DNA from: Nitrospinae bacterium RIFCSPLOWO2_12_FULL_45_22
GTDB lineage: Bacteria > 2-12-FULL-45-22
NCBI GenBank assembly: GCA_001803565.1
Contig: MHDQ01000137.1
Coordinates: 1 to 11,000 of the forward strand
Length of the DNA: 11,000 nt
Reading direction: 5' to 3'
Positions 419 through 10,134 of the stretch are shown here, one piece after another. Within the stretch, counting starts at the first letter, position 1. Each line of letters starts with the position of its first letter. The notes beneath the pieces are model-generated. The model was not told where the DNA came from, made no database searches, and saw only the letters and a program-made list of their open reading frames with translations. A program made the translations under genes and the position numbers.

Positions 419-677
419 TCATTTCTTCTTCATAGAGTTTCTGGTACATAATATCCCATTCCCGAGAACCTTCCTCAATCCTTCTGGTATAAGAAGCCAG
501 GGTCTTCCTCACCGCAGCATCTACTTCATCATCTATCTTTAACTCATCAGTTATTATCTTGACAATCCTTAGCCGGACATCATTATCCCCTTTCAAGAGA
601 GTTATAGCCGGACAGCCTTTCAGGTCTTTAACAATTATTTGCGAGATATAATTAACCTTTTCTCTACTTAACCGCAT
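399..677 (-). CDS. DUF507 family protein
   Basis: This encodes 92 residues, close to the length of single-domain DUF507 proteins as I know them. The family has no established function. The recognisable parts are the N-terminal MRLSREKVNYISQII helix and the C-terminal stretch EEGSREWDIMYQKLYEEE (residues about 69-86), which is the most conserved signature of the family. There is no signal peptide or membrane segment. The protein is charged and probably helical and cytoplasmic. The ATG at 677-675 is the only sensible start because it begins the family signature, but no Shine-Dalgarno sequence precedes it. The 137-base gap to the upstream oxidoreductase gene is filled by a recombinase fragment, so the native promoter and leader may have been lost. 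Transcription may come from readthrough of the por operon. An unassigned frame overlaps its 3' end. Confidence 0.88.
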   Translation of the reverse strand: MRLSREKVNYISQIIVKDLKGCPAITLLKGDNDVRLRIVKIITDELKIDDEVDAAVRKTLASYTRRIEEGSREWDIMYQKLYEEEMNRRQRY

Positions 678-816
678 AGTTGTTTGGCATCTTATCCGTA
701 GTATTGCGGATATTTTTTACTATATTCTCTACCTTTAACTTTACTATTTCACTTACCCGGAGTCCAGCCGAATAAACCAGCATCATGATGGCCTTGTGTT
801 TTAGATTAATGTTTTT
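664..816 (-). pseudogene. Tyrosine recombinase (phage integrase family) fragment
   Basis: Translating the minus strand from about 816 to the TAG at 666-664 gives a stretch containing NLKHKAIMML and then YSAGLRVSEIVKLKVENI. This is the first conserved block of the tyrosine recombinase catalytic domain, with the catalytic Arg in GLRVSE. Family knowledge: a complete enzyme also needs the HxxR block and the nucleophilic Tyr about 100-150 residues later. None of these are present. After the homologous part the frame drifts into unrelated residues and stops. Its upstream edge runs into the 3' end of the alpha-beta oxidoreductase gene (stop at 815-817), and its downstream end overlaps the DUF507 start by 14 bases. 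It is therefore an internal gene fragment of about 35 recognisable residues, not a functional enzyme. Confidence 0.75.
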
Positions 817-2939: not shown

Positions 2940-3182
2940 TCATTCCATAATCATGTTAATAGCTTTTTTGGGACATTCGCACGCACAGATACCGCAGCCT
3001 TTACAGAAGAGATAATCAATGACTGGCTTTTCTTCTTTCAGGATTATCCCTTCCGGACAATACTCTATACAGCGGCCACAGTCACTACATATTTCTAAGT
3101 CTATAATAGGCCGTTCGGTACGCCAACTTCCTGTCTCGCGGGTAGCAAACTCCCGGGTCATGCTAGTAAATGGCAATATCAT
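2940..3182 (-). CDS. porD: 2-oxoacid:ferredoxin oxidoreductase delta subunit (2x[4Fe-4S] ferredoxin)
   Basis: This small ferredoxin-like subunit carries electrons from the cluster of the beta part to external ferredoxin. Two CxxCxxCxxxCP motifs, CSDCGRCIEYCP and CKGCGICACECP, indicate two [4Fe-4S] clusters. The preceding GSWRTERPIID is the usual PorD lead-in. I chose the ATG at 3182-3180 (80 residues), which has a run of seven G three bases upstream that may act as a ribosome binding site. A GTG at 3197-3195 would add five residues but has no visible Shine-Dalgarno sequence. The gene is seven bases upstream of the alpha-beta fusion gene and is separated from the gamma gene by an inverted-repeat element, so it lies within the operon. 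The order gamma-delta-alpha-beta is that of archaeal and Thermotoga enzymes. Confidence 0.9.
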   Translation of the reverse strand: MILPFTSMTREFATRETGSWRTERPIIDLEICSDCGRCIEYCPEGIILKEEKPVIDYLFCKGCGICACECPKKAINMIME

Positions 3183-3242
3183 CTTCCCCCCCGTCACTGG
3201 ACTTTGTCACATTTACCTGGAGCAACCCAGCTTAACAAATTC

Positions 3243-3414
3243 TAAATCCTAAGCACTAAACCCTAAATAATATCAAAATCCTAATTCCAAATCTCAGTGT
3301 TTACCGTGTCGGTGTCCGTGTTCCGTGACCGTGAATTTTACGGACACGACAAATTGTTTTGAATTTTGGTCATTTGAATTTGTTTAGGATTTAGGATTTC
3401 GAGCTTAGGATTTA
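3243..3414. repeat. Palindromic intergenic element between porG and porD
   Basis: A 172-bp element is bounded by a perfect 12-bp inverted repeat, TAAATCCTAAGC at 3243-3254 and GCTTAGGATTTA at 3403-3414. The outer parts are low-complexity AT-rich repeats of CCTAAAT/ATTTAGG type. Inside lies a second imperfect inverted repeat, at 3308-3319 (GTCGGTGTCCGT) and 3340-3350 (ACGGACACGAC), flanked by GTGTCCGTG-like units. It encodes no protein and ends one base before the porG stop codon. Repeats of this look are dispersed in many environmental bacterial genomes. Transcribed, it could fold into a long structure between two subunit genes of one operon. Confidence 0.75.
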
Positions 3415-3415
3415 T

Positions 3416-3994
3416 CTAATGTGACAATGTTATGTTAACTTCTAACCGTTTTATTCGGGCCTTATCGTAAGCAGCCGAGGCCGCTCTAAAATTTAATTCT
3501 GCTTGTTTATCATCAGGGAAGTTCTTGTGAATAGCCTCTTTTATAGCTGTAAGAGTAATTATGGGATAAGCCCGGGCAAAGGCCCCTACCATAGTAGTAT
3601 TGGTAATAGGCGCCCCCAGGATCTCTTTGGCAATATTATTAGCATCTACTACAGCTATTTGGCCTACCTGCTCCATACCAGGCAACTCTTCAGGGAACAG
3701 AGGAGAATTGAATATAGCCGTACCACCTGGTTTCAACCCGTTCAGCACGTTAATGACGTGTGGAAGACGGGCATCCAGAACCATTATGCAATCGGGCTGA
3801 TAGATCTGGGATTTGAGCCGGATGGGCTGCTGATCAATCCTGACGAAAGCTGCTACGGGCGCACCACGGCGCTCGGGGCCATAAAAGGGGTTAGCCCGCA
3901 CCTGATACCCTTCCAGATAAGCCGCTAAGGCCAAGATATTAGCGGCTGTCACTGCCCCCTGGCCACCGCGGCCATGTAATCTAACACTAAGCAT
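3416..3994 (-). CDS. porG: 2-oxoacid:ferredoxin oxidoreductase gamma subunit
   Basis: This 192-residue protein is the gamma subunit/domain of the 2-oxoacid:ferredoxin oxidoreductase and contributes to the CoA side of the complex. The N-terminal GRGGQGAVTAA (residues 8-18) is the Gly-rich signature of the family, and NPFYGPERRGAPV (about 35-47) is a second conserved block. The length is typical, and there is no signal peptide or membrane segment. The ATG at 3994-3992 has a strong GGAGGAG ribosome binding site just upstream, in the 18-base gap after asnS, so it is almost certainly co-transcribed with asnS. The stop codon lies one base from a palindromic element that separates it from porD. With porD and the alpha-beta fusion it makes a complete enzyme. 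Confidence 0.92.
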   Translation of the reverse strand: MLSVRLHGRGGQGAVTAANILALAAYLEGYQVRANPFYGPERRGAPVAAFVRIDQQPIRLKSQIYQPDCIMVLDARLPHVINVLNGLKPGGTAIFNSPLFPEELPGMEQVGQIAVVDANNIAKEILGAPITNTTMVGAFARAYPIITLTAIKEAIHKNFPDDKQAELNFRAASAAYDKARIKRLEVNITLSH

Positions 3995-7885: not shown

Positions 7886-8308
7886 ATGATGAACCGTATC
7901 TTAGGACTAGATATGGGAGAAAAGTTTATTGGTGTGGCGGTGAGTGATCCATCAAAAAAGATTGCTTGCGGCCTCGAAACTTACCAGAGAAAAGGGTTAG
8001 AAAACGACCTGGTTTATCTCAAATGTCTCATAGAACAGTATGAAGTGGAATGCATTGTAGTCGGGTTACCTAAACAAATGGATGGCAGCATAGGTTTACA
8101 GGGAGAAAAAATCCTTGCCTTAGTCAACCAGCTAAGAGAGACCCTTCCCTGCCCGGTATTGACCTGGGATGAAAGACTAACAACCATCTGGGCAGAGAGA
8201 ACCTTATTAGAGGCCGATCTCAGCCGAAGAAAACGAAAAAAGGTGATCAATAAGTTAGCTGCCCAACTTATCCTCCAAAACTATCTGGACTATCGAGCTG
8301 CTCATTGA
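7886..8308 (+). CDS. yqgF: YqgF/RuvX RNase H-like protein (putative Holliday junction resolvase)
   Basis: This 140-residue cytoplasmic protein belongs to the YqgF family, an RNase H-fold group linked to pre-16S rRNA 5' end processing and proposed as a Holliday junction resolvase (RuvX). It is of normal length. Visible motifs are GLDMGEKFIGVAVSD (7-21, with acidic Asp9), VVGLPKQMDGS (58-68), DERLTT (95-100, with Glu96) and NKLAAQLILQNYLD (122-135). In relatives I know, the residue at 122 is the third active-site acid (usually IDxxAA); here the codon 8249-8251 is AAT, Asn. A GGAGGT ribosome binding site at 7870-7875 lies ten bases before the ATG at 7886; a second ATG follows directly. It is the only plus-strand gene here, divergent from the antiporter and convergent, by six bases, with the small membrane protein gene. 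Confidence 0.92.
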   Translation: MMNRILGLDMGEKFIGVAVSDPSKKIACGLETYQRKGLENDLVYLKCLIEQYEVECIVVGLPKQMDGSIGLQGEKILALVNQLRETLPCPVLTWDERLTTIWAERTLLEADLSRRKRKKVINKLAAQLILQNYLDYRAAH

Positions 8309-8314
8309 GGGAGA

Positions 8315-8500
8315 TTAAGCAGCCTTTACCAAATCTTCGGATTTATACTTCGGAACAAGCCCCTTCTTTACCTTTTGTCTTAAAGAGCGGATACCTACCA
8401 CCGCCGCTAATCCAAAAGATAGTAAAAGGGATAGACTAGCCACCAGATTGTTTATGGTTAGCAACGTCTGGTTTGCTGGAAAGCTATATAGATTTTCCAT
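8315..8500 (-). CDS. Small single-pass membrane protein, likely sigma-54 target
   Basis: This 61-residue protein has one hydrophobic segment, about residues 16-36 (INNLVASLSLLLSFGLAAVV), preceded by an uncharged N-terminus. It is followed by a strongly basic tail (RSLRQKVKKGLVPKYK) ending SEDLVKAA. The positive tail suggests N-out/C-in topology by the positive-inside rule. I do not recognise a family. That it is a real gene is supported by an exceptionally purine-rich ribosome binding site, GGAGGAGGTGGAG, just before the ATG at 8500-8498. It is also supported by a consensus -24/-12 promoter 83 bases upstream, and by position directly downstream of a sigma-54 activator gene. It converges on yqgF with no obvious terminator between them. 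A regulatory membrane peptide or a small subunit of a membrane complex are both possible. Confidence 0.72.
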   Translation of the reverse strand: MENLYSFPANQTLLTINNLVASLSLLLSFGLAAVVGIRSLRQKVKKGLVPKYKSEDLVKAA

Positions 8501-8502
8501 CT

Positions 8503-8517
8503 CTCTCCACCTCCTCC
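8503..8517 (-). promoter_or_regulatory. Strong ribosome binding site of the small membrane protein gene
   Basis: On the minus strand GGAGGAGGTGGAGAG precedes the ATG at 8500. It contains two overlapping near-perfect matches to the anti-16S consensus and is much stronger than those of neighbouring genes except porG. It fixes the start and suggests high translation. Directly upstream, GGGAA-CA-TTCCC (8519-8530) is a small perfect dyad that could be an operator or stabilise the leader. Confidence 0.7.
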
Positions 8518-8530
8518 AGGGAACATTCCC

Positions 8531-8582
8531 TTATCAGCCGTCAGCTTTCAGATGAATCAATCGTGAGGCGTAAGGAGTAAGG
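8531..8582. repeat. Fragments of dispersed repeats in the small-gene leader
   Basis: CAGCCGTCAGCTTTCAG (about 8536-8552) and GAGGCGTAAGGAGTAAGGAG (8563-8582) look like pieces of dispersed intergenic repeats. The second matches the GTAAGG/GTGAGG units of the element at 7761-7788. Only one arm is present, so this is not a hairpin. Its right edge runs directly into the -12 part of the sigma-54 promoter. Confidence 0.4.
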
Positions 8583-8598
8583 AGCAAAAACTGTGCCA
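8583..8598 (-). promoter_or_regulatory. Sigma-54 (RpoN) -24/-12 promoter
   Basis: The minus strand reads TGGCAC (8598-8593), five bases, TTGCT (8587-8583). This is a full match to the sigma-54 consensus TGGCAC-N5-TTGCW, with the required ten bases between the GG and GC dinucleotides. The start site would be near 8572, giving a 70-base leader before the 61-residue membrane protein gene. A sigma-54 activator gene ends 133 bases upstream and possible activator sites lie about 100-150 bases upstream of the start, the usual distance. Confidence 0.8.
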
Positions 8599-8673
8599 TC
8601 TAACGGGCAAGGAGTAGAGATCAGACCCAGTGCGGCTAAAGAGACATATAGGCTTTTACCCAACCGGGCAAAC

Positions 8674-8737
8674 TGTTAACTTATAGGTTAACATTGCTAA
8701 GGGTTAGTTTACCATGGTTAACATCTGGGGTTAGTTT
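8674..8737. promoter_or_regulatory. Candidate upstream activating sequence: GTTAAC dyad and tandem repeats
   Basis: TGTTAAC-N6-GTTAACA (8674-8693) is a perfect 7-bp dyad. GTTAAC recurs at 8717-8722 within GTTTACCATGGTTAAC (8707-8722), a near-perfect 16-bp palindrome. GGTTAACAT occurs at 8686-8694 and 8716-8724, and GGTTAGTTT at 8702-8710 and 8729-8737, so a unit of about 27-30 bp is tandemly repeated. The repeats lie about 100-150 bases upstream of the predicted sigma-54 start and overlap the end of the activator gene. This is where the Fis-type domain of an enhancer-binding protein would bind. The function is inferred; the repeats are directly visible. Confidence 0.6.
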
Positions 8738-10134
8738 TTCGTGATGCCGAATTTCTTCATCCTCTTCCAGAGACTCACTCGGCTAATACCGAGGGCCTGG
8801 GCAGTTTTGGTGCGGTTCCAATTGTGTTTTTCCAAAACGACCCGCAAATGGTCTTTTGGTGAAAGGGTTGAAGAAGAGGACTGATCTTTGGGCAGCAAAT
8901 CCCTTTCCGATGAGATGGTAGGGGGATGGTTCTGGTCTTTGGGTTGTATTACTTCTATAGGTAGGTCTTCTAATTTTATTTCAGGAGCATCAGTAACTAC
9001 AAAGGCATATTCCAGGGCATTTTCCAGTTCCCGTATGTTTCCGGGCCAGCTATAGTTCAAAATAGTCCTCATTACCTCTGGGGAACAACCGTAGACCTGT
9101 TTGTTATTCTCTTGATTAAATTTTTTAATGAAATGATCTACCAGGAGGGGGATGTCATCTTTCCTTTCTCTTAAAGGGGGGACATGGATAGGGAATACCT
9201 TGAGGCGGTAATAGAGGTCCTCTCTAAATTTCCCTTGATCAACTAATTGCATCAGGTCTTTGTTAGTAGCCGAGATTATCCTCACATCAATTTTAATGGG
9301 TTTATTATCCCCCACTCGCTCAAATTCCTTTTCCTGTAATACCCGTAGGAGTTTCATCTGGATTAACGGGCTGATATCCCCGATCTCATCCAGGAAAATG
9401 CTCCCACCATTAGCCGCCTCGAACCGACCGGCATGATCTTTGATCGCACCGGTAAAGGCCCCTTTCACATGACCGAATAGTTCGCTCTCCAGGATAGTTT
9501 CGGAGAGGACTGAGCAATTGACTTTTACTAAGGGGTAGTCCTTACGGCTGCTCAGGTAGTGGATAGCATTAGCTATAAGCTCTTTGCCGGTACCACTTTC
9601 TCCCTGGATAAGGACTGATGCATTACTATTAGCGGCCTTTTTAATCAGATCATATAGATTGAGCATCTTATGGTTTTTACCCACTATATTCTCGAAACTA
9701 TATATCTTTTTTAGCCTGGATTGCAGGTCTGTGATCTCTTCTTTAATCTTCTTGAGGGAAGTAATATCGGTTATATTTTCTATCCCACCAATAGCCTCTC
9801 CTAGTTTATTTTTAAGGATGCGGGCATTCTTTAGGATAATCACTTCCCTACCGTCTTTTGCCTGGAAGGTACATTCCTTATTTTCGATATAGCCCAGAGA
9901 AAAGAGCCCACATTTCATTATACCAGTATCACAGGAGGGGCCTTTACAGGTCTCTCCCTCAAAGATATTACAATGTTTTCCCAGGGCTTCCTCTTTGCTG
10001 TATCCGGTGATCCGCTCGGCCCCTTTATTCCAATAGGTGATCCTACCAGACAGGTCTACGGTAAAGAGACCATCGGCCATAGTATCCAGAATGGTCTCAA
10101 TATTTTCCTGCAAAAATTTTAAATCCTCACTCAA
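8731..10134 (-). CDS. Sigma-54-dependent transcriptional activator, PAS-AAA+-Fis
   Basis: This 467-residue enhancer-binding protein drives open-complex formation by sigma-54 RNA polymerase. A PAS sensor domain occupies about 8-125 (DGLFTVDLSGRITYWN at 21-36) and holds a cluster of cysteines at 55, 63, 68 and 75, with a fifth at 88. A short coiled linker follows (about 126-146). The AAA+ domain (about 148-375) has Walker A GESGTGKE (178-185), an intact sigma-54 contact loop GAFTGA (225-230), Walker B GGSIFLDEIGD (243-253) and FREDLYYRL (303-311) with the arginine finger region. A Fis-type helix-turn-helix ends the protein (NRTKTAQALGISRVSLWKRM, 440-459). There is no receiver domain, so the signal is sensed by the PAS domain rather than by phosphorylation. 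The start is TTG at 10134, with AGAGGG about 11 bases upstream. It probably controls the small membrane protein gene just downstream. Confidence 0.92.
   Translation of the reverse strand: MSEDLKFLQENIETILDTMADGLFTVDLSGRITYWNKGAERITGYSKEEALGKHCNIFEGETCKGPSCDTGIMKCGLFSLGYIENKECTFQAKDGREVIILKNARILKNKLGEAIGGIENITDITSLKKIKEEITDLQSRLKKIYSFENIVGKNHKMLNLYDLIKKAANSNASVLIQGESGTGKELIANAIHYLSSRKDYPLVKVNCSVLSETILESELFGHVKGAFTGAIKDHAGRFEAANGGSIFLDEIGDISPLIQMKLLRVLQEKEFERVGDNKPIKIDVRIISATNKDLMQLVDQGKFREDLYYRLKVFPIHVPPLRERKDDIPLLVDHFIKKFNQENNKQVYGCSPEVMRTILNYSWPGNIRELENALEYAFVVTDAPEIKLEDLPIEVIQPKDQNHPPTISSERDLLPKDQSSSSTLSPKDHLRVVLEKHNWNRTKTAQALGISRVSLWKRMKKFGITKN
8851..8946 (-). repeat. PKDQ-type repeats in the AAA+/HTH linker
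   Basis: Residues 397-428 of the sigma-54 activator contain three PKDQ/PKDH units (398-401, 415-418, 426-429) in a Pro- and Ser-rich stretch. At the DNA level CCAAAGACCAG and CCAAAGATCAG recur on the minus strand. The segment is a flexible linker between the AAA+ ring and the DNA-binding helix pair and probably grew by small duplications. Confidence 0.5.

What the first reader, a model, noticed from the sequence alone, without database searches (positions are those of the whole stretch)
8315..10134. Self-contained sigma-54 regulon controlling an unknown 61-residue membrane protein
Four parts lie in order on the minus strand: a PAS-AAA+-Fis activator with intact GAFTGA, a GTTAAC dyad/tandem repeat cluster, a full-consensus TGGCAC-N5-TTGCT promoter, and a tiny single-pass membrane protein with a very strong ribosome binding site. 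The spacing (repeats about 100-150 bases upstream of the predicted start) is what enhancer-binding proteins need. Seen: motifs and distances. Known: sigma-54 activator architecture. Inferred: that this activator acts on this promoter, and that the small protein is the main output. I do not recognise the small protein.
Basis: partly seen in the sequence, partly recalled or inferred. Interest (0 to 1): 0.72.

Follow-up and report, generated by a model that had tools for sequence, protein, structure and literature searches.

The report
Sulfur-sensor-like switch driving tiny membrane protein
A bacterial gene switch, related to ones that in other bacteria stand beside sulfur-detoxification genes, here appears to drive only one tiny, previously undescribed membrane protein, which makes that protein a candidate new player in how cells cope with reactive sulfur.

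Summary
In order on the minus strand lie a PAS-AAA+-Fis activator (8731-10134), three GTTAAC sites (8675-8722), a perfect TGGCAC-N5-TTGCT site (8583-8598), and a well-started 61-codon ORF (8315-8500). The genome encodes RpoN and has 16 such exact sites against 1 in the reversed control. The small ORF is a gene: two diverged paralogs exist, with synonymous changes saturated and purifying selection on the shared N-terminus. It has no relative in about 780 other genomes searched.

Comparative evidence ties activator to operator. The activator belongs to a cysteine-PAS group of EBPs. A 14-member subclade of that group repeats the window's layout: EBP stop, GTTAACs, a sigma-54 site about 100-220 bp downstream, then in those with an identifiable target mostly rhodanese or MBL-rhodanese genes. 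GTTAAC occurs 31 times there (window included) against 1.2 expected, and 0 times beside 16 other EBPs. Sister groups neighbour thioredoxin, DsrE2, TusA and sulfur-transport genes.

So the best reading is a FisR-like, probably reactive-sulfur-responsive, dedicated switch whose sulfur gene output is replaced by an orphan single-pass membrane protein. The small protein is not conserved beside homologous activators. The signal and the protein's job are inferred, not shown.

The parts
8731..10134 (-). Activator gene (467 aa): PAS domain with Cys55/63/68/75/88, sigma-54 AAA+ domain with GAFTGA, Fis-type HTH
8674..8722 (.). Operator (upstream activating sequence): GTTAACCATGGTAAAC (8707-8722) and TGTTAACCTATAAGTTAACA (8674-8693), with three GTTAAC cores
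8583..8598 (-). -24/-12 sigma-54 promoter TGGCACAGTTTTTGCT (predicted start about 8572)
8519..8530 (-). GGGAATGTTCCC inverted repeat in the leader, immediately before the ribosome binding site (role unknown)
   Evidence: stem present in the fold
8507..8517 (-). Shine-Dalgarno GGAGGAGGTGG
8315..8500 (-). 61-aa single-pass membrane protein (TM about residues 19-37, +6 net charge after it), founder of a 3-member orphan family
7886..8308 (+). Convergent ruvX (PF03652), which bounds the transcript so that the small gene is the only ORF behind the promoter

Best explanation
This is a dedicated one-component sigma-54 switch of the FisR-like, cysteine-PAS kind. The activator's PAS cysteines most likely sense a reactive sulfur (sulfane sulfur/persulfide) or thiol-redox signal. 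The activator binds the GTTAAC cluster just behind its own stop codon and uses its GAFTGA AAA+ domain to open RpoN-polymerase at the -24/-12 site about 85-125 bp away. The product is a monocistronic mRNA for a 61-residue single-pass membrane protein, predicted N-out/C-in with a basic cytosolic tail, which probably acts as a small accessory or modulator of a membrane partner during that stress. Shown by sequence and comparison: the parts, the operator-promoter layout, the clade, and the reality of the gene. Inferred: the sulfur signal, the binding itself, and the small protein's job.
For: Operator and promoter: the 14 FisR-type homologs plus the window carry 31 GTTAACs in the 250 bp after the EBP stop against 1.2 expected, in 14 of 15 loci, and 0 in 16 other EBPs. 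A sigma-54 site follows at about +102 to +222 in 14 of the 15 (window +132). An earlier regex for inverted GTTA(A)C, fixed on the first set, found 6 of 8 against 0 of 16 and was then hit again in the new set. Clade: the window activator branches beside the FisR-type and sulfur-transport/rhodanese-type groups (94/88), all keeping Cys at window positions 55, 63 and 88, apart from one homolog (L148) with Ala at 55. Neighbours of the group: MBL+rhodanese, rhodanese, thioredoxin, pyridine-nucleotide disulfide reductase, DsrE2, TusA, PF04143 sulfur transport. Known biology: Cupriavidus FisR forms a C53-C64 tetrasulfide (PMC8614764), and FisR activates sulfide-oxidation genes from a predicted sigma-54 promoter in A. 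baumannii (PMC7315123). Small gene: paralogs and purifying selection, and a helix over residues 8-45 (pLDDT 70).
Against: The window's own target is not a sulfur gene, and no recognised sulfur gene lies in the window. The activator is a sister of, not inside, the FisR-type subclade, and its extra Cys68/Cys75 pattern differs. L113/L114, the closest homologs (56-57%), have a shorter GTTAC palindrome. The small protein has no known relative or partner, and its paralogs sit in unrelated contexts.
Confidence: 0.6

Rival explanations
1. Same dedicated sigma-54 switch, but the PAS-Cys domain senses something other than reactive sulfur (oxygen/redox, metal, nitric oxide or a small organic ligand), and the sulfur neighbours of relatives do not carry over.
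For: PAS domains are promiscuous sensors. The window lies outside the FisR-type subclade and its target is not a sulfur gene. Related Cys-PAS EBPs with another spacing (L053, L055, L058, L120) lie beside unrelated genes.
Against: The operator (GTTAAC) and the sulfur/thiol theme are shared by several independent branches around the window's branch.
Confidence: 0.25
2. The promoter's product is a regulatory RNA (or an antisense RNA to convergent ruvX) and the ORF is secondary.
For: The transcript would be short, folds somewhat better than shuffles (z -2.5) and could run into ruvX; no clear terminator was found.
Against: Strong Shine-Dalgarno, protein-level conservation with saturated synonymous sites against a paralog, and paralogs with their own ribosome sites.
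Confidence: 0.08
3. The small protein is a membrane-acting toxin-like or stress peptide whose sigma-54 control simply limits its dose.
For: A single hydrophobic helix with a basic tail, orphan distribution, several copies per genome.
Against: No antitoxin RNA or partner gene seen. One paralog sits between two chemoreceptor genes, which fits a membrane accessory role better. A conserved soluble N-terminal MxN[LM]Y[ST]FP motif is unusual for such peptides.
Confidence: 0.12

Closest known systems
FisR (sigma-54 activator of sulfide oxidation; Cupriavidus pinatubonensis, Acinetobacter baumannii)
   Same: N-terminal sensor domain (with conserved cysteines in Cupriavidus), AAA+ domain, Fis-type DNA-binding domain, target promoter of -24/-12 type next to the activator gene; related clade members sit beside rhodanese/MBL genes
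   Different: Output is an orphan 61-aa membrane protein, not sqr/pdo; target is downstream and co-directional rather than divergent as in A. baumannii; extra Cys68/Cys75; sister branch rather than inside the FisR-type subclade; sulfide response untested
PspF / phage-shock operon
   Same: Sigma-54 activator adjacent to a gene for a small membrane protein
   Different: PspF has no sensor domain and its operon encodes PspA-E (own knowledge); no PspA here and no sequence relation of the small protein
NorR
   Same: One-component sigma-54 activator with sensory N-terminus and clustered operators near the target
   Different: NorR has a GAF iron domain; here PAS; NCBIfam NorR match is far below cut-off (340 vs 476 bits)
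Small membrane subunits (CydX, KdpF, CcmD, symporter small subunits)
   Same: Size and single-pass topology
   Different: No profile match in Pfam or NCBIfam; no adjacent partner complex

Membership tests
Sigma-54 enhancer-binding proteins (EBPs) | AAA+ sigma-54 interaction domain with Walker A and GAFTGA, Fis-type HTH | tested here: met
   PF00158 4e-71, PF02954 7e-12, GAFTGA in the translation
Sigma-54 enhancer-binding proteins (EBPs) | Cognate RpoN and -24/-12 promoter with upstream operator at looping distance | tested here: met
   rpoN in genome; perfect site, 16 vs 1 control genome-wide; GTTAAC 82-124 bp upstream of the site
FisR | Conserved sensor-domain cysteines (C53/C64 cross-link in Cupriavidus) | tested here: inconclusive
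FisR | Regulates adjacent sulfide-oxidation genes (sqr, pdo) | tested here: not met
   Adjacent target is the 61-aa orphan; no recognised sulfur gene in the window
FisR | Falls inside the subclade that neighbours MBL/rhodanese genes | tested here: not met
   Window is sister to it (94/88) rather than inside
FisR | Activation by sulfide or sulfane sulfur | not testable with these tools
   needs expression data
Known small membrane protein families (Pfam, NCBIfam) | Profile match above cut-off | tested here: not met
   Pfam best E 0.11, below cut-off; NCBIfam none

The most novel reading that the evidence does not exclude
A reactive-sulfur-responsive sigma-54 activator has exchanged its usual sulfur-detoxification output for a lineage-specific tiny membrane protein family (with a chemoreceptor-operon paralog), so that the cell's sulfur alarm acts through a membrane modulator, possibly tuning chemotaxis or respiration, rather than through an enzyme.
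Probability: 0.3. Interest if true: 0.65.

Novelty: new variant of a known kind. Interest (0 to 1): 0.45.

Why it matters
Orphan small proteins are rarely assignable to any process. Here an operator shared with sulfur-linked activators gives a concrete, testable prediction (induction by sulfane sulfur) for an otherwise uninformative 61-residue protein. The GTTAAC operator with its fixed spacing offers a ready signature for finding FisR-like regulons in uncultured bacteria, and shows how an activator-operator-promoter cassette can keep its wiring while its output changes.

Tried and rejected
Homologs of the small protein: none convincing in 97 and 385 diverse other genomes, 395 genomes of the BMS3Abin06 phylum (the two best hits checked lie in frames with stops or unrelated frames), viral contigs, or plasmids (with a paralog). 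The only same-order genome held (G001, 68% complete) lacks the small protein; its best activator hit is an ortholog of another own-genome EBP (C295), so it cannot test conservation. Genome-wide matches to the palindrome with up to 2 mismatches are near control level (24 vs 16), and the one-mismatch site lies inside a coding frame, so no wider regulon is claimed. Paralogs under the same promoter type: L003 has no good -24/-12 site and instead a sigma-70-like TTGACA-N17-TATTTT; L002 lies inside an MCP operon. Plasmid relatives of the activator (Bosea, Roseomonas) have no sulfur neighbours and about 40% identity, so they were not used. AlphaFold model and Foldseek of the small protein: a lone helix, no meaningful match. 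Small-RNA reading considered and set low.

Full report
Check of the observation. The window holds, in order on the minus strand, a site-2-protease-like gene, the activator, an intergenic operator-promoter stretch, the 61-aa ORF, and then convergent ruvX. The promoter TGGCACAGTTTTTGCT matches the -24/-12 consensus at every informative position. In the whole genome (G000, 3.67 Mb) the exact pattern TGGCAC-N5-TTGCW occurs 16 times against once for the reversed pattern. Many sites lie before plausible targets (flgB-like, FprA-like and histidine kinase genes, judged by eye). RpoN is encoded. Five of the 16 sites, including this one, lie within 250 bp downstream of a co-directional EBP gene, so 'activator, then its promoter' is a habit of this genome. 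The three GTTAACs lie 82, 94 and 124 bp upstream of the -24 element; none of the other exact sigma-54 sites has a GTTAAC within 200 bp.

Is the small ORF a gene? Yes. The genome has two paralogs: L002, 40 aa, between two chemoreceptor (MCP) genes, and L003, 64 aa, upstream of mtnA. L002 is clear (E 1e-7); L003 is weak pairwise (E 0.07) but shares the N-terminal motif. All three begin MxN[LM]Y[ST]FP, have one hydrophobic stretch and keep an Arg after it. Against L002, the shared first 23 codons show dN about 0.19 with dS saturated. Each has its own Shine-Dalgarno. Hydropathy and the positive-inside rule suggest N-out/C-in. AlphaFold gives one helix over residues 8-45 at modest confidence. No Pfam or NCBIfam family matches, and no convincing relative was found in about 780 other genomes, viral contigs or plasmids.

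Does the activator act on this operator? Homologs with the same PAS domain were collected from two searches. A first set of eight clade members showed an inverted GTTA(A)C repeat within 400 bp in six, against none of 16 other EBPs, with about 0.015 expected per locus. That motif was written after seeing some of these sites, so it was then applied to 30 newly fetched loci. In the FisR-type subclade (14 loci, 100/100 support) plus the window, GTTAAC occurs 31 times in the 250 bp after the activator's stop against 1.2 expected, in 14 of 15 loci. A sigma-54 site follows, most often at about +120 to +150. The window (GTTAAC at +8, +38, +50; promoter at +132) is a standard example of this layout. 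Other EBPs: 0 GTTAACs in 16 loci.

What does it sense? The PAS domain carries Cys55, 63, 68, 75 and 88. Positions 55, 63 and 88 are shared by nearly all of the sulfur-linked homologs (L148 has Ala at 55). Genes beside these homologs: MBL plus rhodanese (L119, L148, L164, L167), rhodanese (L147, L152, L161 downstream; L142, L144, L145 and L151 divergent), thioredoxin (L113, L114, L115), disulfide reductase (L115), DsrE2 with Hdr-like genes (L116), DsrE2 plus TusA (L146), and PF04143 sulfur transport (L118, L166). Some of these were assigned by Pfam and the rest by eye from the translated starts. Not every FisR-type locus has such a gene within reach: L153, L156 and L158 lead with a secreted HHYC-motif protein, and several loci show nothing recognisable in the 1.5 kb held. 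In the literature, FisR of Cupriavidus forms a tetrasulfide between C53 and C64 (PMC8614764), and FisR of A. baumannii activates a sulfide-oxidation operon from a predicted sigma-54 promoter, though without those cysteines (PMC7315123). A reactive-sulfur or thiol-redox signal is therefore the best inference, not a demonstration. 'FisR-type' here names the subclade by its neighbours and operator; the Cupriavidus protein itself could not be aligned.

What is different? In the window the place of the sulfur genes is taken by the orphan 61-aa gene, alone before convergent ruvX. In the two closest homologs (56-57%) it is taken by a 62-63-aa lipoprotein followed by a thioredoxin. So the wiring is conserved and the output is not. 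The activator-promoter link survives; the idea of a widely conserved small-protein regulon does not.

Mechanism. Shown: parts, layout, clade, gene reality. Inferred: cysteine chemistry relieves the PAS domain, the activator oligomerises on the GTTAACs, loops to RpoN-polymerase and hydrolyses ATP to open the promoter; the short mRNA is translated strongly; the membrane protein modulates a partner. A hint of a second target is the MCP-small protein-MCP operon, which has GCAGTTAACTGC about 70 bp before an imperfect -24/-12-like sequence (GGCAGGCATAATGCA) upstream of the first MCP. This is weak and post hoc.

Limits. The genome is a draft (85% complete) from an isolated lineage: only one same-order genome is held, 68% complete, with no rpoN match. 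The rooting of the activator tree is uncertain and the key branch has 94/88 support. No expression or binding data exist.

Noticed in passing
L068:1311-1433 (-) and 3030-3420 (-): A 40-aa paralog of the small protein lies between two MCP genes, the second with a CLHCH heme-like motif. Upstream of the first MCP are two GTTAACs, one in a GCAGTTAACTGC palindrome, before a weak GG-N10-GC site.
   Followed up: partly
L003:1465-1659 (-): A 64-aa paralog upstream of mtnA with a sigma-70-like TTGACA-N17-TATTTT promoter instead of sigma-54.
   Followed up: partly
L035, L045 (and a diverged copy in L047): Two sigma-54 promoters of the same genome share TTGGGTAATTT[GA][TC]TTCCCA upstream, an operator of another EBP regulon, possibly the PEP-CTERM/exopolysaccharide type.
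   Followed up: no
L131:9960-11525, L132:1313-1936: The closest activator homologs drive a 62-63-aa lipoprotein followed by a thioredoxin, in one genome in the same frame as a Ser/Thr kinase domain.
   Followed up: partly
L142-L146, L149-L151, L154, L155, L159, L160, L162, L165, L166, L170: A sister group of Cys-PAS EBPs in the BMS3Abin06 phylum mostly has divergent sigma-54 promoters toward universal-stress-like proteins, PF04143 transport, rhodanese/cytochrome or TusA/DsrE2 genes.
   Followed up: partly
L064:5660-6193; L153, L156, L158 downstream: Secreted proteins with a DIHIVAPH...FHHYC motif recur beside Cys-PAS EBPs in different genomes, including the window's order-mate; a possible common target family.
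   Followed up: no
window 8519-8530: GGGAATGTTCCC perfect inverted repeat directly before the ribosome binding site of the small gene; could be a leader hairpin.
   Followed up: no
window 664-786 (-): A 40-aa ORF (LVYSAGLRVSEIVKL) that looks by eye like a fragment of a tyrosine recombinase.
   Followed up: no
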